Source: Bizionia paragorgiae (GTDB lineage: Bacteria; Bacteroidota; Bacteroidia; Flavobacteriales; Flavobacteriaceae). From it: a stretch of DNA of 64,000 nucleotides. The notes under the pieces are model-generated. The model saw only the letters and a list, made by a program, of their open reading frames with translations, searched no databases and was not told the origin of the DNA. Position numbers and translations under genes: made by a program. The stretch lies in contig NZ_FNQK01000003.1 in NCBI RefSeq assembly GCF_900107625.1, forward strand, positions 1 to 64,000. Direction: 5' to 3'. This document shows positions 25,097 through 43,802 of the stretch, piece by piece (position 1 is the first letter of the stretch; the number at the start of each line of letters is the position of its first letter).

Positions 25097-27658
25097 ATGG
25101 CGAAGAATTTAGTTATAGTAGAGTCCCCTGCAAAGGCAAAAACAATTGAAAAATTTCTAGGAAAAGATTTTAAAGTTGAATCTAGTTACGGACATATTTC
25201 CGATTTACCTTCCAAGGAATTAGGAGTCGATGTAGAAGGCGATTTTGAACCAAGATACGAGGTGTCTACCGATAAGAAAGCGGTAGTTAAAAAATTAAAA
25301 GATTTAGCAAAGAAAGCAGATATGGTTTGGCTAGCAAGTGATGAGGATCGCGAGGGAGAAGCGATAGCATGGCACTTAGCAGAGTCCTTAAACCTTGATA
25401 AAGATAAAACGAAACGTATTGTATTTCATGAGATTACTAAATCGGCAATACAAAAAGCAGTAGAAAACCCGAGACAAATAGATTACGATTTAGTCGATGC
25501 ACAACAAGCACGTCGTGTATTAGATAGAATAGTAGGGTACGAATTGTCTCCTGTATTATGGAGAAAAGTAAAAGGAGGCTTGTCGGCTGGTCGTGTGCAA
25601 TCCGTTTCTGTACGTTTAATAGTAGAGCGTGAACGCGAAATTCAAGACTTTCAAGCGGAAGCGTCTTACCGTATCGATGCAGAATTCTCTAATGAAGAAG
25701 GGCAGTCGTTTAAAGCGAAATTGCCAAAATCAATTCAGACTAAAGAAGAAGCAGTAGCGTTTTTAGAAAAAAAGGCCAATACCACTTTTAAGGTTGCTAA
25801 CTTAGAGAAAAAGCCAGCGAAGAAATCGCCAGCAGCACCGTTTACCACATCAACATTACAACAGGAAGCTTCACGTAAACTATATTTCTCGGTAAGTAAA
25901 ACCATGAACATGGCACAACGTTTATACGAAGCCGGTCTAATTACTTATATGAGAACAGATAGTGTAAACTTGTCTGATGAAGCTCGAAAAGGCGCCGAAA
26001 AGGAAATTATTAAAGCCTACGGTAAAGAATACAGTAAAACACGAAATTATAAAGGGAAATCTAAAGGAGCTCAAGAAGCTCACGAAGCAATTCGACCAAC
26101 AAATTTTGAAACCCATACAGTAAATTTAGAACGCGATCAAGCGCGTTTATACGATTTAATTTGGAAACGTGCTATTGCATCGCAAATGAGTGAGGCTAAA
26201 CTAGAACGTACCCATGTTAAAATTGAAGCGGCATCGCACAATGAAACCTTTACAGCAAATGGAGAGGTTATTACCTTCGACGGGTTTTTAAAAGTGTACT
26301 TAGAAGGTACCGATGATGAAGATATCGAGCAAGAAGGTATGTTACCAGCAATGAAGGTTAACGAAACGTTATTGAATAATTATATTACAGCTACCGAACG
26401 CTATACTAGAGCGCCTTACCGTTATACCGAGGCTTCTTTAGTTAAAAAGTTAGAGGAGTTAGGAATTGGTCGTCCGTCTACTTATGCCCCAACGATTTCT
26501 ACAATTCAGAATAGAAACTATGTAGAAAAAGGAACTATAGAAGGAGTAGAACGTAATTATACGCAACTCGTTTTAAAAGATGATACTGTTAAAGATAACA
26601 CCTTAACAGAGAAAGTAGGATCGGATAAAGGAAAGTTGGTACCAACAGATATTGGTATGATTGTTACCGATTTCTTGGTAAATCATTTTGAAACTATTTT
26701 AGATTATAGTTTTACGGCTAATGTAGAAGATCAGTTTGATGATATTGCCGATGGTAAAGCCGACTGGAAAGTTGTTATGAAATCGTTTTATAAAGATTTC
26801 CATCCTAAAGTTATCGATGTTCAGGAGAATGCGGAACGCGAATCGGGAGAACGTATTTTAGGAGAAGACCCAAAAACAGGAAAACGCGTTAGTGTGCGTT
26901 TAGGTAAATTCGGACCTATGGTACAGATGGGGACAGTAGAGGATGAAGAAAAACCGACTTACGCAAGTTTAAGCCCAGATCAACAATTAAACACCATCAC
27001 CTTTGAGGAGGCTATGGATTTATTCCAGTTGCCAAAAACGCTGGGGGAATATAAAGGAGAGTCTGTAGAAGTTAATAATGGACGTTATGGTCCGTATGTT
27101 AAGTTTGGGGATGCTTTTGTCTCTTTACCTCGTGGTACCGATCCTTTAAGTGTAGAATTTGATGATGCTCTGGAGCTGATTAAAGAGAAAGAGAAAGCAG
27201 ATGCACCTATATATATGTATAAAGATTTACCGGTGCAAAAAGGAAAAGGGCGTTTCGGACCATTTATTAAATGGAATGATATGTTTATTAATGTGAATAA
27301 AAAATACGATTGGGATAATTTATCGGATGCTGATATTGTAGAATTGATAGAAACAAAAATCCAAAAGGAGATTGATAAAGTGATTCACAATTGGGAAGAT
27401 GAAGGTATTCGCGTAGAAAAAGCACGATGGGGCCGTTTTAATATTATTCAAGGTAAAACAAAAATAGAGTTGCCAAAAACAACAGATGCTGAAGCATTGA
27501 GTTTAGATGAAGTGAAGGCTTTAATAGAGCAACAGGCACCAAAGAAAAAAGCGACCAAGAAAAAAGCGGCAGCAAAAAAAGCACCGGCTAAGAAGGCAGC
27601 AACCAAGAAAACCACAGCTAAGAAAACAGCTGTAAAGAAAACCACTACAAAAAAGTAA
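25097..27658 (+). CDS. topA: DNA topoisomerase I
   Basis: This type IA topoisomerase relaxes negative supercoils. TOPRIM motifs are VIVESPAKAKTIEKFLG and ASDEDREGEAIAWHL, and the active-site Tyr lies in LITYMRTDSVNLS. The zinc fingers of the E. coli enzyme are absent; instead the C-terminal part has repeats of the type GRYGPYVKFGD and a Lys/Ala-rich, histone H1-like tail. The reading frame is open upstream to 25064, but the ATG at 25097 fits the family and follows the promoter. Length is 853 residues. Confidence 0.97.
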   Translation: MAKNLVIVESPAKAKTIEKFLGKDFKVESSYGHISDLPSKELGVDVEGDFEPRYEVSTDKKAVVKKLKDLAKKADMVWLASDEDREGEAIAWHLAESLNLDKDKTKRIVFHEITKSAIQKAVENPRQIDYDLVDAQQARRVLDRIVGYELSPVLWRKVKGGLSAGRVQSVSVRLIVEREREIQDFQAEASYRIDAEFSNEEGQSFKAKLPKSIQTKEEAVAFLEKKANTTFKVANLEKKPAKKSPAAPFTTSTLQQEASRKLYFSVSKTMNMAQRLYEAGLITYMRTDSVNLSDEARKGAEKEIIKAYGKEYSKTRNYKGKSKGAQEAHEAIRPTNFETHTVNLERDQARLYDLIWKRAIASQMSEAKLERTHVKIEAASHNETFTANGEVITFDGFLKVYLEGTDDEDIEQEGMLPAMKVNETLLNNYITATERYTRAPYRYTEASLVKKLEELGIGRPSTYAPTISTIQNRNYVEKGTIEGVERNYTQLVLKDDTVKDNTLTEKVGSDKGKLVPTDIGMIVTDFLVNHFETILDYSFTANVEDQFDDIADGKADWKVVMKSFYKDFHPKVIDVQENAERESGERILGEDPKTGKRVSVRLGKFGPMVQMGTVEDEEKPTYASLSPDQQLNTITFEEAMDLFQLPKTLGEYKGESVEVNNGRYGPYVKFGDAFVSLPRGTDPLSVEFDDALELIKEKEKADAPIYMYKDLPVQKGKGRFGPFIKWNDMFINVNKKYDWDNLSDADIVELIETKIQKEIDKVIHNWEDEGIRVEKARWGRFNIIQGKTKIELPKTTDAEALSLDEVKALIEQQAPKKKATKKKAAAKKAPAKKAATKKTTAKKTAVKKTTTKK

Positions 27659-27662
27659 ATTC

Positions 27663-28832
27663 ATGAATTTTAGTTTTCTTTCGCCCGTTGCCAATGCAGT
27701 ACTTTCTCATAATGAGTTGTTATCTATGCAAGCTCTAGGGCGGAAATTAAGAATACACAGTGTAGAAGAAGGAATTCCAGATTTAACAGGCGTTTCTGTA
27801 GCACTTATTGGTGTGTTAGAAAATCGTAATAGTGTCGATTATATTGGTGAGGAGTATGATTTGAATGAAGTCCGTAAAGCCTTCTATGCATTATACCCAG
27901 GAAGTTGGAATGTTACTATTGCCGATTTAGGAGATATAGAAAAAGGCGAAAGCGTAGAGGATACCTACTTTGCGTTAAAGACAACGGTGTCTATTTTAAT
28001 CGAAAAAAAGATTATACCTATTATTATAGGGGGAAGTCAAGATTTAACCTACCCTATATATCGCGCATACGACAATGTAATGCCTATGGTAAATATTGTC
28101 AATGTAGATGCAAAATTTGATTTAGGTGATTCGGCAAAACCAATTAAAAATAATAGTTTTATAGGTAAGATTATTTTAGACGAACCTTATAACCTATTCA
28201 ATTACGCGGCTATTGGGTATCAAACCTATTTTAATTCTCAAGAAGAGATCGATTTAATGGAGCGCTTGTATTTTGAGGCGTACCGATTAGGTGAGGTGTC
28301 TAACGATATTACTATTGTAGAACCTGTAATGCGAGATGCCAATATTGTAAGTGTCGACTTAGGTGTTTTAAAAGCATCGGAGGTAAGTTTAAAACAGCGG
28401 TTGTCTCCCAATGGACTCGATGGTAAAGAAATTTGTGCTGTATCGCGCTATGCTGGTATAAGTAATAAGGTGTCGGCATTTGGGATTTTCGACTACAAAC
28501 CGTCTTATGATGATGAAATGACCGAAATGTTACTTGCGCAAATGATTTGGTATTTTATTGAAGGATTCAACTATCGTGTTAAAGATGATGACTTTGTAAC
28601 CGGTAATAATCATCAAAAATACATTACTTTAGCAGAGAGTCATGAGCTGGTATTTTACAAGAGTATTAAAACAGGGCGTTGGTGGATTGAAATACCTTTT
28701 TTAGCAAATGTTAATAATAAATTAAAAAAGCACACGTTATTACCATGTACTCATAAAGACTATTTGGATGCGTGCAATAACCAAATACCTGATAGATGGT
28801 ATAAAGCGTTTCAGAAAAACAGCGTATATTAG
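27663..28832 (+). CDS. Arginase-fold (ureohydrolase-like) protein, probably catalytically dead
   Basis: The 389-residue protein has the arginase/formimidoylglutamase fold, with strands such as PIIIGGSQDLTYP and MVNIVNVDAKFDLGD. The Mn-binding residues of active enzymes are not kept: GGSHD is GGSQD, DAHFD is DAKFD, and SxDxDxxDP reads SVDLGVLKA. It starts 4 bp after topA and is followed by gldKLMN, a placement I recall as common in Flavobacteriia. A structural or binding role linked to the gliding/T9SS machinery is inference. Automatic names such as formimidoylglutamase are likely misleading. Confidence 0.75.
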   Translation: MNFSFLSPVANAVLSHNELLSMQALGRKLRIHSVEEGIPDLTGVSVALIGVLENRNSVDYIGEEYDLNEVRKAFYALYPGSWNVTIADLGDIEKGESVEDTYFALKTTVSILIEKKIIPIIIGGSQDLTYPIYRAYDNVMPMVNIVNVDAKFDLGDSAKPIKNNSFIGKIILDEPYNLFNYAAIGYQTYFNSQEEIDLMERLYFEAYRLGEVSNDITIVEPVMRDANIVSVDLGVLKASEVSLKQRLSPNGLDGKEICAVSRYAGISNKVSAFGIFDYKPSYDDEMTEMLLAQMIWYFIEGFNYRVKDDDFVTGNNHQKYITLAESHELVFYKSIKTGRWWIEIPFLANVNNKLKKHTLLPCTHKDYLDACNNQIPDRWYKAFQKNSVY

Positions 28833-28839
28833 GCAACCG

Positions 28840-28865
28840 AATGTTATTGTTTTTTAACATTTTAT
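28840..28865 (+). terminator. Weak terminator-like hairpin after the arginase-fold gene
   Basis: Arms AATGTTA (28840-28846) and TAACATT (28855-28861) enclose 8 bases and are followed by a short T-rich stretch. The stem is AT-rich, so strength is doubtful. Confidence 0.4.
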
Positions 28866-28920
28866 TAATCGATTAATGGTATTTTAACACGATTAAATGT
28901 TGTTTTTTTTAGTAAAAAAG

Positions 28921-28951
28921 TTGTTTTTTAAATATTATATAAATATGTTTA
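28921..28951 (+). promoter_or_regulatory. Candidate promoter of gldKLMN
   Basis: TTG at 28921-28923 and TATGTTTA at 28944-28951 (one mismatch from TAnnTTTG) are 20 bp apart. A 5' leader of about 45 nt follows and contains a hairpin. Confidence 0.5.
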
Positions 28952-28952
28952 C

Positions 28953-28973
28953 GCTCTTAAAAAAAATAAGAGC
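28953..28973 (+). repeat. 5' leader hairpin of the gldK transcript
   Basis: Arms GCTCTTA and TAAGAGC are perfect, with a loop of seven A. It would lie at or near the 5' end of the mRNA if the promoter at 28921-28951 is used. Confidence 0.55.
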
Positions 28974-29003
28974 AATTAATTAACCTTATAGGTATCAATA
29001 AAT

Positions 29004-30368
29004 ATGAAGAAATTTCTATTATTAACGGCAGTTTTGACACTTTTAGCAAGTTGTGGATCTAAAGACAAAGGTCAACTAGTTGGTGTGAAAGGAAAAAAAT
29101 GGCATCCAGAAAAACCTTATGGTATGACATTGGTGCCAGGTGGTGCATTTATTATGGGTAAAGCTGATGATGATTTAGCTGGTATTCAGGATGCTCCGGC
29201 AAAAACAGTTACGGTAAGAGCTTTTTACATGGACGAAACGGAAATTACTAATAGTGAGTACCGTCAGTTTGTAGAATGGGTTCGTGACTCTACAATTAGA
29301 ACAAAATTGGCAATTTTAGCTGATGAGGTTGGTGAAACGGATTCAGAAAACCCTGGAATTGGTCAGTTTGCTTTTAAAGGCGCTAACGAAGAGGAGATGA
29401 CAGTATATGAAAAGTATATGTTTGATAACTATAGTGGCTTAGGTGAAACAGGATATGAAGGAAGAAAATTAAACAAAGAAGTTGATTTGATTTTCGATAC
29501 TGCTGAATATCCAGACGAATACTATGCTGAGGTTATGGATACAATGTATCTTCCTATAGAAGAGTCTTATAACGGACAAAGAACTTGGGATGTCACTAAG
29601 TTTAAGTTTCAATATACTTACATGGATATTGAAAAAGCGGCAAAAAATAGAAACTTAAGACGTAAGGATGTTATTATGAAAGAAGAAGTAGCTATCTACC
29701 CAGATACTACGGCTTGGATTAGAGATTTCGCTTACTCTTATAACGAACCAATGCACAACGATTACTTCTGGCACGATGCGTATAGTAACTACCCAGTAGT
29801 TGGTGTTACTTGGAAACAAGCTAAAGCATTTTGTCAATGGAGAACTTTATTACACAATGAATATAGAAAAGAGAAAAAGAAAGCTTTTGTAAACTCTTAC
29901 CGTTTGCCATCTGAGGCAGAGTGGGAGTATGCAGCAAGAGGAGGATTGCAAGCAGCAACATTCCCTTGGGGTGGGCCATATGCTAAAAACGACAGAGGTT
30001 GTTTTATGGCTAACTTTAAACCATTACGTGGTGACTATGCAGCAGATGAAGCTTTATATACTGTAGAAGCTGATGCTTATGAGCCAAATGATTTCAACCT
30101 TTACAATATGGCTGGAAACGTTTCAGAATGGGTAAACGCATCATACGATCCAGGATCATATGAGTTTGCATCGACTATTAATCCAAGTGTAAACGATAAA
30201 AATAATCAACGTAAAGTGGTTAGAGGAGGATCTTGGAAAGATGTAGCTTACTTCCTACAAGTAAGTTCAAGAGATTACGAATATGCAGATTCTTCAAGAA
30301 GTTATATTGGTTTCAGAACTGTTCAAGATTATATGGGAACTGAAGTTACGGCTAACTCTAGAAGATAA
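29004..30368 (+). CDS. gldK: Gliding motility / T9SS lipoprotein GldK
   Basis: GldK (PorK) forms, with GldN, the outer-membrane-associated periplasmic ring of the type IX secretion system. The lipobox LLASC gives Cys17. The rest is a sulfatase-modifying-factor (FGE) fold: MTLVPGGAFIMGK, FYMDETEITNSEYRQF, YRLPSEAEWEYAARGG, NVSEWVNASYD and VVRGGSWKD. It is the first gene of gldKLMN. Confidence 0.97.
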   Translation: MKKFLLLTAVLTLLASCGSKDKGQLVGVKGKKWHPEKPYGMTLVPGGAFIMGKADDDLAGIQDAPAKTVTVRAFYMDETEITNSEYRQFVEWVRDSTIRTKLAILADEVGETDSENPGIGQFAFKGANEEEMTVYEKYMFDNYSGLGETGYEGRKLNKEVDLIFDTAEYPDEYYAEVMDTMYLPIEESYNGQRTWDVTKFKFQYTYMDIEKAAKNRNLRRKDVIMKEEVAIYPDTTAWIRDFAYSYNEPMHNDYFWHDAYSNYPVVGVTWKQAKAFCQWRTLLHNEYRKEKKKAFVNSYRLPSEAEWEYAARGGLQAATFPWGGPYAKNDRGCFMANFKPLRGDYAADEALYTVEADAYEPNDFNLYNMAGNVSEWVNASYDPGSYEFASTINPSVNDKNNQRKVVRGGSWKDVAYFLQVSSRDYEYADSSRSYIGFRTVQDYMGTEVTANSRR

Positions 30369-39386: not shown

Positions 39387-42300
39387 ATGATTAACAAAAT
39401 CATTTCATTTTCCATTAATAACAAGTTTATTATTGGGCTCTTTATAGTGGCACTTGTAGGTACGGGCATTTGGTCTATGGCCACTATAAATCTGGGTTCT
39501 GTACCCGATATTACCAACAACCAAGTACAGGTTATTACAGTTGCCCCAAATTTAGGTACTGAAGACATTGAACAATTTGTTACTTATCCGGTAGAATTGG
39601 CAATGGCAAATCTACCAGACGTTATCGAGCTGCGTTCGGTGTCTCGTTTTGGATTGTCAGTTGTTACTATCGTATTTGAGGACGAGGCAGGCACATATCT
39701 TCCCCGGCAATTAGTGCAAGAGAAATTAACCGAAGTTGCCGGAGAAATCCCCGAAGGCTTCGGCACGCCATTTATGGCCCCAATTACCACAGGTTTGGGC
39801 GAAATCTACCAATACAGCCTAAAAGTAAAGGAAGGCTACGAAGATAAATACGATGCAATGGAGCTTCGTACCATCCAAGATTGGATTGTAAAACGCCAAA
39901 TGGCATTAGTTCCAGGAGTCGTCGAGGTAAATGCTTTTGGAGGATTTGTGAAGCAATATGAAGTAGCCATAAACCCCAATAAGCTAAAAAGTTTCGGTAT
40001 TACAATGAACCAGGTCTTTGAAGCCCTTAAAGTGAACAATGCCAATACTGGAGGTGCCTATATAGAAAAAAATAACCAAGCCAATTTTATCCGTGGCGAA
40101 GGCTTGGCCCGAAGTATCGCCGATTTGGAAAACACAGTTGTAACTACTCAAAACGGTAGTCCCGTTTTAATACGGGATGTCGCTGAAAAGGTTGGATATG
40201 GCAGCCAAGTACGCTATGGCGCTTTTACCCAAGATGGACACGAATCTGTGGGCGGACAAATTTTAATGCTGAAAGGCGAAAGCCCAGGCGACGTGATCGA
40301 AAATGTGGAAAAGCGTATTGTAGAAATTCAAAAATCCCTGCCGGAAGGCGTTTATATTGATGCTTTTTTAAGTCGAAGTGAACTTATTGAGGCAACCACA
40401 AGTACCGTTAAAACAAATCTAATAGAAGGTGCCCTTATTGTCATATTTGTTTTGGTCTTGCTTTTAGGAAGCTTCCGTGGTGGCTTGATAGCAGCGTCGA
40501 TAATCCCTTTATGCCTATTATTTGCATTTATTTTGATGAAACAATTTGGCATTTGGGCAAATTTAATGTCCTTGGGTGCGATCGATTTTGGGATTATTGT
40601 AGATGGTGCGGTGATTATCGTGGAAGGAGCGGTTTTCCACATTCATCAACGGATGAAAAAATCCACAACCGCCATTAACCAAGCTGAAATGGATGAAATC
40701 GCCTATGACTCTTCAAGTAAAATGATGAATTCTGCCTTCTTCGGTCAACTAATTGTTCTTATAGTTTTTACACCTATTCTGTTTTTGACCGGTGTGGAAG
40801 GGAAAATGTTTCGACCAATGGCATTTACATTTGGTTTTGCCGTTTTAGGGGCAATTATTCTTTGCCTTACCTACGTACCAATGATGTCATCATTATTTTT
40901 AAAACCTGCTAAAAATCAAAATAGTTGGTTTGCCAAATTTGAAAACAAGATTGATAGGTTCAGTGATAAAATTATGGGGGTTCTGAATCGTATCTATCTG
41001 CCTATATTAAATTTTGCACTTCGCTTTCGGGCAGGTGTGGTTATAGGCGCGGTTGCCTTGCTTTTGATTGCAGGATTTATTTTTAGCAATATGGGAGCAG
41101 AATTTGTCCCTAAATTTGATGAAGGCGATATTGCATTTCAAGCATTGATAAAACCAGGGAGCAGTCTTTCAGAATCTATTGAGGCCTCAGAGAAACTTCA
41201 GAATTTAATCAATGAGTTTCCGGAAGTAAAAACAGTAGTTTCAAGGATTGGTGTGGCTGAAATACCAACAGACCCAATGCCTATGGATATTGCCGATAGT
41301 TATATTATTCTTGAAAAGGACAAGAGTAAATGGACATCCGCAGATAGTAAAGAAGAACTCATAGAAAAGATTCAAGAAAAAATTTCAGTAGTTCCCGGCG
41401 TAAATTTTGTGTTTACACAACCTGTAGAACTTCGTTTTAATGAATTGCTGACTGGTGTCCGTGAAGACGTGGCCATCAAATTGTACGGAGAAGATTTGGA
41501 CGTTTTGGCAGACAAGATACAGGAAATCGCGGCAGTAATTAGGACCGTTCCCGGAGCGGCTGACATTAATGTGGAGGCTACAAGTGGTTTGCCACAAATG
41601 ACGGTGGTATATAACCGTGCGAAAATGGCACAATACGGTGTAACCGTTGATAAGCTGAATGATTATGTAAGTGCTTCATTTTCAGGAGAACAGGCAGGAG
41701 TCATTTTTGAAGGGGAAAAACGGTTCGATGTGGTCATTCGTTTGGCAGAGGAATATCGACAAGACATCAATAGCTTAAAAAACCTTTATATAGACCTGCC
41801 AAACGGTGCACAAGTACCATTAAAGGAGGTGGCAGATATCAGCTATAAACCCGGACCAATGCAGATTTCAAGAGACAATACCTCTCGTCGTACTTCCGTG
41901 GGCGTGAATGTTCGTGGGCGCGATGTAAAATCGATGGTCGAGGAAATTCAACAAAAATTGGAAACGGATGTTAAACTGCCACCAGGTTATTTTGTAACCT
42001 ACGGCGGATCATTTGAAAACCTACAACGAGCATCAGACCGATTGATGATTGTAGTCCCAATCGTTCTATTAACAATATTTGTTCTGCTTTACTTTGCTTT
42101 GAATTCAGTTACACAAGCCTTGATGATCTATATGGCAGTGCCTTTGGCGGCCATTGGTGGCGTTTTCGTTTTGTTGATTCGTGGAATGCCTTTCAGTATT
42201 TCCGCGGGAGTCGGATTTATCGTGCTCTTCGGAGTTGCCGTATTAAACGGACTCATACTCATAAATAAGTTCAATGAATTAAAAGACAGTGGAATGACAG

Positions 42301-43802
42301 ATTTAAAAAAACGTATATATGAAGCTACGCACGAACGTTTACGTCCAATTTTATTAACAGCCATTACAACAATTATGGGCTTTATCCCAATGGCGATTTC
42401 TACCTCTGGTGGTGCCGAAGTACAGCGGCCCTTGGCGACAGTAGTCATTGGAGGAATGCTTACGGCAACATTTCTGACCTTGGTGGTTATTCCTATTCTT
42501 TATTATTGGCTTGAATCGAGAAAGGAACGAAACAATAACGATGGAGGTGTAAGCTATGTCAACAAATCAACGAACATTGTAACCGTATTATTGATGGTTG
42601 GCGGTTTGATGGCTTCTGGAACTGCTTTTGCCCAAGACACCAATCAAAATGGAACAATGCCAAAAACCTTGACTGTAGATGAGGCCATTGCTATGGCAAA
42701 ACAGAATTATCCATCGCTTAAGGAAAGTCAGGCATTTATTGAACGGGAAAAGGCACTGAAGGGAACGAGTTTTGACCTTGGTAGCACACAAGTTTTCACG
42801 GGCAAAGAAGAATATGGCAATAATCTTCCTGGAGTGCAAACAACCGTTGGCGTGCAACAGGGCAATATCGATTTGCTTTCAGGATTTTCAAAATCGAAGT
42901 TTTATAAAGAGCGCATTGCCTTGGGAGAAAAGTTTTATGTGGCCAGTGAACAACAGTTGGTGCGCAATGTGATGCAAGCCTATGACCAAATTAATTATTA
43001 CAAGGCACAGTTGCGTTTTGCAGACCAATTGGACAGTATTTATGCCAATTTTAAGTCCGCTGCCCAACTTCGGTATGACACTGGAGAAACAGGCAAGTTG
43101 GAATTTATTTCAGCCTCTTCCGAATTTCAACAGATTCAAGTGTTGAGGCAACAAGCTTTTGATGATATTGAAATTGCCAAACGTGCCTTAAAACAATATT
43201 TGGGAACGGATGAAACCATCGAGACGGTAGATGGTTTTTACGAGCCATTGGATTTTATGGCGACATTGGATTCAACTTCGGTTGCCAATAACCCAATGTT
43301 GCAATATGCCTTGCAAAATGCCGAAGTAAGTAAAGCAAATGTGGGCGTTGAAAAATCGCAATTCCTACCGAAATTCAGTTTATCATATGGCAGGCAGGTT
43401 GTGGATGATGTTTCAGGGTTTAATACCTATCAGGCAGGTATTAGTATTCCGTTATGGTTTTTTCCGCAGAAGTCAAGGGTTAAGGCAGCCAAGGCAGACG
43501 CAATGGTAGCAGAGAATCAATATTTGGAGCAAAAAGCGGTTACAGAAAGTCGTGTTTCACAATTGACCAAATCACTCGAAAAAACAAAGAAGATTTTGCA
43601 ATATTACGAAGAAGGCGCACTATTGTTGGCAGAAGAACAAATTACCACAGCGCAGTTGGCTTCTAAAGAAGGCGAAATAGATTACGTCAATTATATCACC
43701 ATTCTTAATAGTGCCATCCGTATTAAACAAAACCATTTACAATACATCAATCAGTATAACCAGCAGACCATTGATATGCAATATCAATTGGGCAATTTAT
43801 AA
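39387..43802 (+). CDS. CzcA/CusA-type heavy-metal RND pump fused to a TolC-like outer-membrane factor
   Basis: Residues 1 to about 1045 form a full heavy-metal RND transporter with twelve membrane helices and two periplasmic loops. The fourth-helix motif D400-F-G-I-I-V-D406-G-A fits the divalent-cation (Zn/Co/Ni/Cd) pumps better than CusA. Residues from about 1090 to 1471 form an outer-membrane-factor domain (PKTLTVDEAIAMAKQNYP, coiled-coil hairpins). The joint at about 1065-1082 reads like a Sec signal peptide ending AFA-Q. Fused forms of this size are common in Bacteroidota. The adaptor gene follows. Confidence 0.92.
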   Translation: MINKIISFSINNKFIIGLFIVALVGTGIWSMATINLGSVPDITNNQVQVITVAPNLGTEDIEQFVTYPVELAMANLPDVIELRSVSRFGLSVVTIVFEDEAGTYLPRQLVQEKLTEVAGEIPEGFGTPFMAPITTGLGEIYQYSLKVKEGYEDKYDAMELRTIQDWIVKRQMALVPGVVEVNAFGGFVKQYEVAINPNKLKSFGITMNQVFEALKVNNANTGGAYIEKNNQANFIRGEGLARSIADLENTVVTTQNGSPVLIRDVAEKVGYGSQVRYGAFTQDGHESVGGQILMLKGESPGDVIENVEKRIVEIQKSLPEGVYIDAFLSRSELIEATTSTVKTNLIEGALIVIFVLVLLLGSFRGGLIAASIIPLCLLFAFILMKQFGIWANLMSLGAIDFGIIVDGAVIIVEGAVFHIHQRMKKSTTAINQAEMDEIAYDSSSKMMNSAFFGQLIVLIVFTPILFLTGVEGKMFRPMAFTFGFAVLGAIILCLTYVPMMSSLFLKPAKNQNSWFAKFENKIDRFSDKIMGVLNRIYLPILNFALRFRAGVVIGAVALLLIAGFIFSNMGAEFVPKFDEGDIAFQALIKPGSSLSESIEASEKLQNLINEFPEVKTVVSRIGVAEIPTDPMPMDIADSYIILEKDKSKWTSADSKEELIEKIQEKISVVPGVNFVFTQPVELRFNELLTGVREDVAIKLYGEDLDVLADKIQEIAAVIRTVPGAADINVEATSGLPQMTVVYNRAKMAQYGVTVDKLNDYVSASFSGEQAGVIFEGEKRFDVVIRLAEEYRQDINSLKNLYIDLPNGAQVPLKEVADISYKPGPMQISRDNTSRRTSVGVNVRGRDVKSMVEEIQQKLETDVKLPPGYFVTYGGSFENLQRASDRLMIVVPIVLLTIFVLLYFALNSVTQALMIYMAVPLAAIGGVFVLLIRGMPFSISAGVGFIVLFGVAVLNGLILINKFNELKDSGMTDLKKRIYEATHERLRPILLTAITTIMGFIPMAISTSGGAEVQRPLATVVIGGMLTATFLTLVVIPILYYWLESRKERNNNDGGVSYVNKSTNIVTVLLMVGGLMASGTAFAQDTNQNGTMPKTLTVDEAIAMAKQNYPSLKESQAFIEREKALKGTSFDLGSTQVFTGKEEYGNNLPGVQTTVGVQQGNIDLLSGFSKSKFYKERIALGEKFYVASEQQLVRNVMQAYDQINYYKAQLRFADQLDSIYANFKSAAQLRYDTGETGKLEFISASSEFQQIQVLRQQAFDDIEIAKRALKQYLGTDETIETVDGFYEPLDFMATLDSTSVANNPMLQYALQNAEVSKANVGVEKSQFLPKFSLSYGRQVVDDVSGFNTYQAGISIPLWFFPQKSRVKAAKADAMVAENQYLEQKAVTESRVSQLTKSLEKTKKILQYYEEGALLLAEEQITTAQLASKEGEIDYVNYITILNSAIRIKQNHLQYINQYNQQTIDMQYQLGNL

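What the first reader, a model, noticed from the sequence alone, without database searches (positions are those of the whole stretch)
27663..28832. Arginase-fold pseudoenzyme between topA and the T9SS operon gldKLMN
All three metal-binding motifs of ureohydrolases are changed (GGSQD, DAKFD, SVDLGVLKA), while the fold and length are kept. A dead enzyme held next to the gliding/secretion motor suggests a repurposed scaffold or ligand sensor.
Basis: partly seen in the sequence, partly recalled or inferred. Interest (0 to 1): 0.6.

Follow-up and report, generated by a model that had tools for sequence, protein, structure and literature searches.

The report
Dead arginase relative beside secretion genes
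A protein built like the enzyme arginase, but with half of its metal-gripping residues gone and a new tail added, has been kept across a whole class of bacteria, often next to the genes of their secretion and gliding motor, yet it also survives where that motor has been lost, so it is probably a binding protein with a job of its own.

Summary
ORF 27663-28832 (+, 389 aa) is a ureohydrolase-fold protein (Pfam Arginase 2.4e-17; AlphaFold pLDDT 89.3; best solved match formiminoglutamase, Z 34.4) between topA and gldKLMN. Three of six metal ligands are replaced (Q126, K151, G234); three Asp remain. In 165 relatives the His126 ligand is lost in 165 and Asp234 in 164. The family separates from 22 ureohydrolases on one supported branch and carries an extra C-terminal domain. 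It lies just upstream of gldL in 73 of 109 class genomes examined, 22 families: ancient placement, not random. But presence does not depend on the motor: in one genus 60 of 60 genomes keep the gene, including 7 without GldL and 10 tested without SprA, while 10 SprA-bearing genomes lack it. The most degenerate members keep the C-terminal half, not the metal pocket. Best reading: a class-wide pseudoenzyme acting as a cytoplasmic binding/adaptor protein, probably co-transcribed with topA; partner unknown. Our paper searches found no account of it.

The parts
27663..28832 (+). Pseudo-ureohydrolase ('ARG'), 389 aa, no signal peptide seen in the N-terminus (read by eye)
27720..28580 (+). Ureohydrolase (arginase-fold) core, residues 20-306
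   Evidence: VIA-align Z 34.4, rmsd 2.2 over 278 residues to formiminoglutamase 4myn; Foldseek
28029..28043 (+). GGSQD, residues 123-127; Q126 replaces ligand His101 (Q in 146, H in 17 of 165 rows)
28107..28121 (+). DAKFD, residues 149-153; K151 replaces ligand His126 (lost in 165 of 165 rows); D149 and D153 kept
28350..28364 (+). SVDLG, residues 230-234; D232 kept, G234 replaces ligand Asp234 (lost in 164 of 165 rows)
28581..28829 (+). Family-specific C-terminal domain, residues 307-389 (four strands, two helices; RWW and PCxxxDY motifs)
   Evidence: no Foldseek match at E<=0.001
25097..27658 (+). topA, DNA topoisomerase I (start taken at the ATG inside the listed frame); ends 4 bp before the ARG start codon
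   Evidence: gap median 6 bp in 78 named loci
28833..29003 (+). ARG-gldK gap, 171 bp; no + strand terminator-like site
29004..30368 (+). gldK (T9SS ring lipoprotein)
   Evidence: TIGR03525, 595.6 bits
30438..31079 (+). gldL (T9SS motor)
   Evidence: TIGR03513, 233.9 bits
31126..32691 (+). gldM (T9SS motor)
   Evidence: TIGR03517, 467.4 bits
32734..33633 (+). gldN (T9SS ring)
   Evidence: TIGR03523, 271.7 bits
33653..33683 (+). Terminator-like hairpin after gldN, 14 pairs

Best explanation
A class-wide pseudoenzyme. An ureohydrolase of the formimidoylglutamase/agmatinase type lost its second metal site once, near the base of the class, gained an ~83-residue C-terminal domain, and has since been kept under strong purifying selection as a non-catalytic cytoplasmic binding protein (adaptor or regulator). 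The old pocket is filled by a polar network of three Asp with Q126 and, often, a Lys/Arg where a metal-ligand His was; the working surface is most likely the C-terminal half plus the new domain. The gene is probably read with topA and, by position, has been an ancestral neighbour of the T9SS porP-gldKLMN block, but the protein is not a dedicated T9SS part. Shown: fold (by prediction), ligand loss, added domain, conservation, gene order, persistence without GldL and SprA. Inferred: absence of catalysis, single origin, cytoplasmic location, protein binding as the mode of action. Unknown: the partner.
For: Fold: (pLDDT 89.3). Ligand loss: H126 position 165/165, D234 164/165 rows; further loss in f2 (3 rows) and f5 (2 rows). 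One branch against 22 ureohydrolases, SH-aLRT 100, quick tree. Selection: dN/dS 0.036. Conservation: 12 of 17 columns invariant over 26 diverse members lie in residues 187-362, none is a metal ligand. L053 (f5) and L216, L217 (f99) match the family profile over the C-terminal half only. Retained in 60 of 60 sampled genomes of genus g19 though GldL is missing in 7 and SprA in 10 of 13 chosen ones. Gap to topA median 6 bp, n=78.
Against: The first metal site (Q/H plus three Asp) is kept whole in 152 of 165 rows, more than a plainly dead pocket needs, so a single-metal or ligand function is possible. No interaction was tested. Breakpoints favour topA only weakly: among 20 loci not called linked, 6 keep topA-ARG alone and 2 keep ARG-porP-gld alone. 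The class-wide link to gldKLMN is unexplained if the function is unrelated, and four genomes without SprA also lack the gene (G230, G238, G351, G416).
Confidence: 0.55

Rival explanations
1. Dedicated accessory or regulator of the T9SS/gliding motor (for example binding the cytoplasmic part of GldL).
For: Same-strand position 2.1-5.4 kb upstream of gldL in 73 of 109 class genomes examined, 22 families; order topA-ARG-porP-gldKLMN in distant families; the only + strand terminator-like site between topA and the end of gldN is a 5-pair one inside gldK; four genomes without SprA also lack the gene (G230, G238, G351 of f11 and the 0.5-Mb G416).
Against: In genus g19 it is kept in the 7 genomes without GldL and in the 10 tested ones without SprA; two single-contig assemblies, G647 and G656, lack both proteins and keep it. 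It was not found in 10 SprA-bearing genomes of f10, f11, f12, f71, f99, f111 (in f99 the gene is so divergent that a miss is possible).
Confidence: 0.2
2. Still a catalyst or single-metal protein: the first metal site (three Asp plus Gln/His) binds one divalent ion and supports a changed reaction or a structural role.
For: D124 164/165, D128 155 D plus 10 N, D232 164/165, Q or H at H101 163/165; all four together (D at 128) in 152 of 165.
Against: Lys or Arg at the H126 position in 97 of 165 rows would compete with a metal; the 3 f2 rows lost D124, D128 and D232 as well, and L053, L216 and L217 have no recognisable N-terminal half, with the gene still kept.
Confidence: 0.15
3. Ligand sensor: the pocket binds a guanidino or amino-acid signal without cleaving it and passes the state to a partner through the C-terminal domain.
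For: Conserved polar pocket residues together with a conserved appended domain.
Against: No ligand evidence; pocket residues are the part that the most degenerate members lose.
Confidence: 0.08
4. A decaying relic carried along in a slowly rearranging gene block.
For: Metal ligands lost; lower identity than topA and gldK in the same loci.
Against: dN/dS 0.036; open full-length frames in 60 of 60 sampled genomes of g19; kept away from topA and gld in fetched loci of f3, f4, f8, f9.
Confidence: 0.02

Closest known systems
Formimidoylglutamase (HutG) and agmatinase, ureohydrolase superfamily
   Same: Fold over residues 20-306; best sequence family hits.
   Different: Half of the six metal ligands replaced; scores 67.9 of 229.15 bits for hutG; extra C-terminal domain.
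MetCb/MfmB, metal-free subunit of metformin hydrolase (PMC11271267; passages seen)
   Same: Arginase-family pseudoenzyme acting as a protein binder; metformin hydrolase chains are among the structural matches.
   Different: MetCb pairs with an active ureohydrolase from the same gene cluster; in the window the neighbours are topA and gldK.
Trypanosoma brucei arginase-like protein (PDB 4rhi/4rhm/4rhq; titles seen)
   Same: Arginase-fold protein known for a lost metal centre (recalled; one search holds a passage that such metal-free arginase relatives exist in eukaryotes and prokaryotes).
   Different: A eukaryotic protein; its ligand changes, as named in the PDB titles, are others.

Membership tests
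Ureohydrolase (arginase) superfamily | Arginase fold and profile match | tested here: met
   Pfam PF00491 63.8 bits, cut-off 22; Z 34.4 to 4myn
Catalytic ureohydrolase | Six ligands of the binuclear metal centre (H, D, H, D, D, D) | tested here: not met
   Q126, K151 and G234 in the window; no row of 165 has the full set
Catalytic ureohydrolase | Hydrolase activity | not testable with these tools
   needs purified protein
Formimidoylglutamase HutG (TIGR01227) | Score over the curated cut-off | tested here: not met
   67.9 bits against 229.15
T9SS/gliding component | Encoded beside core T9SS genes | tested here: met
   in the window and in 73 of 109 class genomes examined; loci
T9SS/gliding component | Present and absent together with the T9SS | tested here: not met
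   kept without GldL and SprA; missing with SprA present in 10 genomes; four genomes lack both
T9SS/gliding component | Needed for export or gliding | not testable with these tools
   needs a deletion mutant
Pseudoenzyme subunit of a ureohydrolase pair (MetCb type) | Active ureohydrolase partner encoded beside it | tested here: not met
   window neighbours are topA and gldK; the two ureohydrolase genes of this genome with intact ligands lie on other contigs, C32 and C17
Known fold for the C-terminal domain | Match to a solved structure | tested here: inconclusive
   separate model pLDDT 76.7; no Foldseek match at E<=0.001; best VIA Z 3.5

The most novel reading that the evidence does not exclude
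An unnamed, class-wide protein family of Bacteroidia-type bacteria: a ureohydrolase emptied of catalysis once, fitted with a new C-terminal domain, placed ancestrally between topoisomerase I and the T9SS motor genes, and kept even after T9SS loss, so that it is a core adaptor of these cells and hides in databases under enzyme names.
Probability: 0.5. Interest if true: 0.65.

Novelty: new variant of a known kind. Interest (0 to 1): 0.5.

Why it matters
Genes of this family match formimidoylglutamase models and can be given an enzyme name although they lack residues of the reaction centre; metabolic models that use such names would be wrong across a class. A deeply conserved pseudoenzyme with a clear enzyme ancestry is worth having, and its T9SS neighbourhood makes the question of a shared function directly testable by one gene deletion in a laboratory flavobacterium.

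Tried and rejected
Viral contigs: no relative by a single-sequence search. Papers: gldK with arginase (1 paper, on a duck disease by its listing), gldK with formimidoylglutamase (none), type IX secretion with formiminoglutamase (1 genome description), Fjoh_1852 (none; the tag is recalled), arginase/pseudoenzyme/metal-binding (none), metformin hydrolase (2), arginase-like protein of T. brucei (4), gldK/topA/Flavobacterium (1 paper), formimidoylglutamase/Flavobacterium/gliding/transposon (118 papers with at least three terms; the 10 listed hold formimidoylglutamase 0 times), ureohydrolase/Bacteroidetes/pseudoenzyme (13 with at least two terms, 10 listed). Only PMC11271267 was opened (passages); the rest were seen as listings. 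Most subscription papers are not in the library, so earlier mention cannot be excluded.

A flavobacterial promoter pattern (TTG-N17-23-TAnnTTTG, recalled) in the ARG-gldK gap: 3 of 81 gaps against a shuffle mean of 1.2 and maximum of 5, no support; in ARG-porP gaps 4 of 30 against a mean of 0.5 and maximum of 3, too few to use. Neighbours in families without the link: one protein each was named by Pfam (thioredoxin-like in L037 of f3, peptidase S13 in L045 of f4, glycosyltransferase in L049 of f2); no constant partner was found, but not all neighbours were named. A candidate T9SS-less genome, G446, was rejected: it lacks GldL, GldN and SprA matches but has at least 150 sorting-tail matches, so an assembly gap is likelier. 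G359, kept as T9SS-less, has one sorting-tail match, as has G002. The C-terminal domain gave no convincing solved match; a known fold is not excluded. The structure tool gave no coordinates, so conserved residues could not be placed on a surface.

Limits of the counts: one search used the 109 of 247 genomes whose ARG and GldL rows were both among the printed 150 of each search; the 20 loci were chosen because linked there and the 20 because not called linked. The 13 genomes were chosen (7 without GldL, 6 with). The 23 genomes were chosen because ARG or GldL was missing or weak. The 165 rows hold 162 distinct C-terminal sequences (L008/L034 and L009/L035 are the same genes, and L127 has the contig length of L035); f2 and f5 rows (5) were counted apart. 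The tree is a quick one with long branches L001, L002, L052.

Full report
What is there. The ORF at 27663-28832 (+) encodes 389 residues and starts 4 bp after topA. The flanking genes pass curated models: TopA, GldK, GldL, GldM, GldN. The nearest named relative found is 91% identical, in Bizionia saleffrena (L054), so the window is from a Bizionia-like flavobacterium.

Fold and motifs. Pfam Arginase matches residues 82-298. The AlphaFold model from 26 family members has mean pLDDT 89.3 and pTM 0.91. VIA-align gives Z 34.4, rmsd 2.2 over 278 residues, to Trypanosoma cruzi formiminoglutamase, spanning model residues 20-306. Residues 307-389 are a family-specific domain of four strands and two helices. 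Modelled alone (pLDDT 76.7) it finds no solved structure at E<=0.001 and at best Z 3.5; this leaves its fold open.

Ligands. Over 165 rows (80 named, 85 unnamed; 162 distinct C-terminal sequences), the position of His126 is never His, Asp234 is replaced in 164 (L121 has Asp), His101 is Gln in 146 and His in 17, Asp124 is kept in 164, Asp128 is Asp in 155 and Asn in 10, Asp232 is kept in 164; no row has all six, and 152 keep the whole first site with Gln or His. So the second metal site is gone throughout, while the first mostly keeps its three Asp. Where His126 was, 97 rows have Lys or Arg; a positive side chain in place of a metal ion is an inference. In three f2 rows (27-28% identical) Asp124, Asp128 and Asp232 are lost as well, and two f5 rows are degenerate too. 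In contrast 22 of 22 ureohydrolases used as outgroup keep His126 and Asp234; 4 of them have Asn at His101 and one has Asn at Asp128. The own genome holds two of these, on other contigs, with all six ligands; one lies in what looks like a polyamine gene set (neighbours read by eye).

Origin. A quick tree puts the 38 family rows on one side of a branch (SH-aLRT 100) against the 22 ureohydrolases. Eight outgroup loci outside the class, 11-16.5 kb each, show no topA or gld match. One loss of catalysis and one gain of the domain is the simplest reading; it is inferred, not shown.

Distribution and order. In 247 genomes of the class the family profile matches 232, some of them weakly or in part (such as G448, G477, G479, G548), and GldL reaches its cut-off in 233. 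In the 109 genomes with both rows printed, 73 have the gene 2.1-5.4 kb upstream of gldL on the same strand, in 22 families. Of 20 such loci fetched, 19 show the order topA, ARG, porP, gldK, gldL, gldM, gldN, several with miaB on the opposite strand before it; one lacks topA. The neighbour called porP was named by Pfam in L038. In the window's family no porP lies there (none in the 80 named loci). Of those 80, 77 have topA and gldK in reach and the 3 others are cut by contig ends. Of 20 loci not called linked, 6 prove linked to topA and porP/gldK, 2 keep only porP-gld, 6 keep only topA, and 6 keep neither in the usual arrangement (in L160 porP-gldK lies 4 kb off in the other orientation). In 78 named loci the gap to topA has median 6 bp and to gldK 159 bp. 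The only + strand terminator-like site between topA and the end of gldN is a 5-pair one inside gldK; a 14-pair one follows gldN. Reading: ARG is probably transcribed with topA; read-through into gldK is possible.

Test of the T9SS role. I looked for genomes that lost the system. In 60 sampled genomes of genus g19 (family f3), GldL reaches cut-off in 53, and the gene is present over its full length in 60. SprA is absent in 10 of 13 chosen genomes: the 7 without GldL plus G002, G606 and G632. G647 and G656, single contigs, lack both proteins and keep the gene. In G359 GldN is absent too. Conversely, 10 of the 23 genomes chosen for searches have SprA and no match to the family at E<=1 (G410, G347, G394, G565, G588, G190, G249, G371, G532, G506; some are incomplete, and in f99, the family of G532 and G506, the gene is very divergent where seen). 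On the other side, three f11 genomes (G230, G238, G351) and one 0.5-Mb genome (G416) lack both SprA and the gene, as a shared role would predict. On balance position is linked to T9SS, presence is not tied to it.

What is conserved. Of 17 columns invariant in 26 diverse members, 12 lie in residues 187-362 and none is a metal ligand. One f5 member (L053) and two f99 members (L216, L217) keep recognisable sequence only from about profile position 182 or 205 onward, with the RWW and DY motifs; another f5 member, L052, matches from position 62. Between window and Bizionia saleffrena dN/dS is 0.036. The part that selection holds most widely is therefore the C-terminal half and new domain, not the pocket.

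Mechanism. Most likely a cytoplasmic binding protein: enzyme core as a rigid platform, C-terminal half as the contact surface. Predicted fold, ligand loss, added domain, distribution and gene order are shown; lack of catalysis, location and binding are inferred; the partner is unknown. The nearest worked example is MetCb, the metal-free partner in metformin hydrolase (PMC11271267, passages), but that one pairs with an active ureohydrolase of the same gene cluster, which is not the case here.

Verdict. New variant of a known kind (ureohydrolase pseudoenzyme). No account of it was found in the paper searches, in a library without most subscription journals.

Noticed in passing
L212 (G002) and L213 (G632), genus g19: gldK, gldL, gldM and gldN relatives are present but rearranged, and SprA is not found in these genomes, whereas SprA-bearing G658 has the usual gldKLMN order (L214). 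This looks like a GldLM-type motor without the T9SS translocon.
   Followed up: partly
window 39387-43802 (+): One 1471-aa frame fuses a CusA/CzcA-type RND pump (residues 1-1051) to a TolC-like outer-membrane factor (from about 1184).
   Followed up: no
L216, L217 (family f99) and L053 (f5): Family members of about 280-315 aa in which only the C-terminal half is recognisable; what the N-terminal part has become was not examined.
   Followed up: partly
window 28833-29003 and the same gap in 78 named loci: The ARG-gldK gap clusters at about 110 and 160 bp, which suggests a kept regulatory stretch, but the promoter pattern tried was not enriched.
   Followed up: partly
L002:1357-2400 (own genome, contig C17): A third arginase-family protein (347 aa) with all six ligands, divergent from both the agmatinase-like gene on C32 and the window protein.
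   Followed up: no
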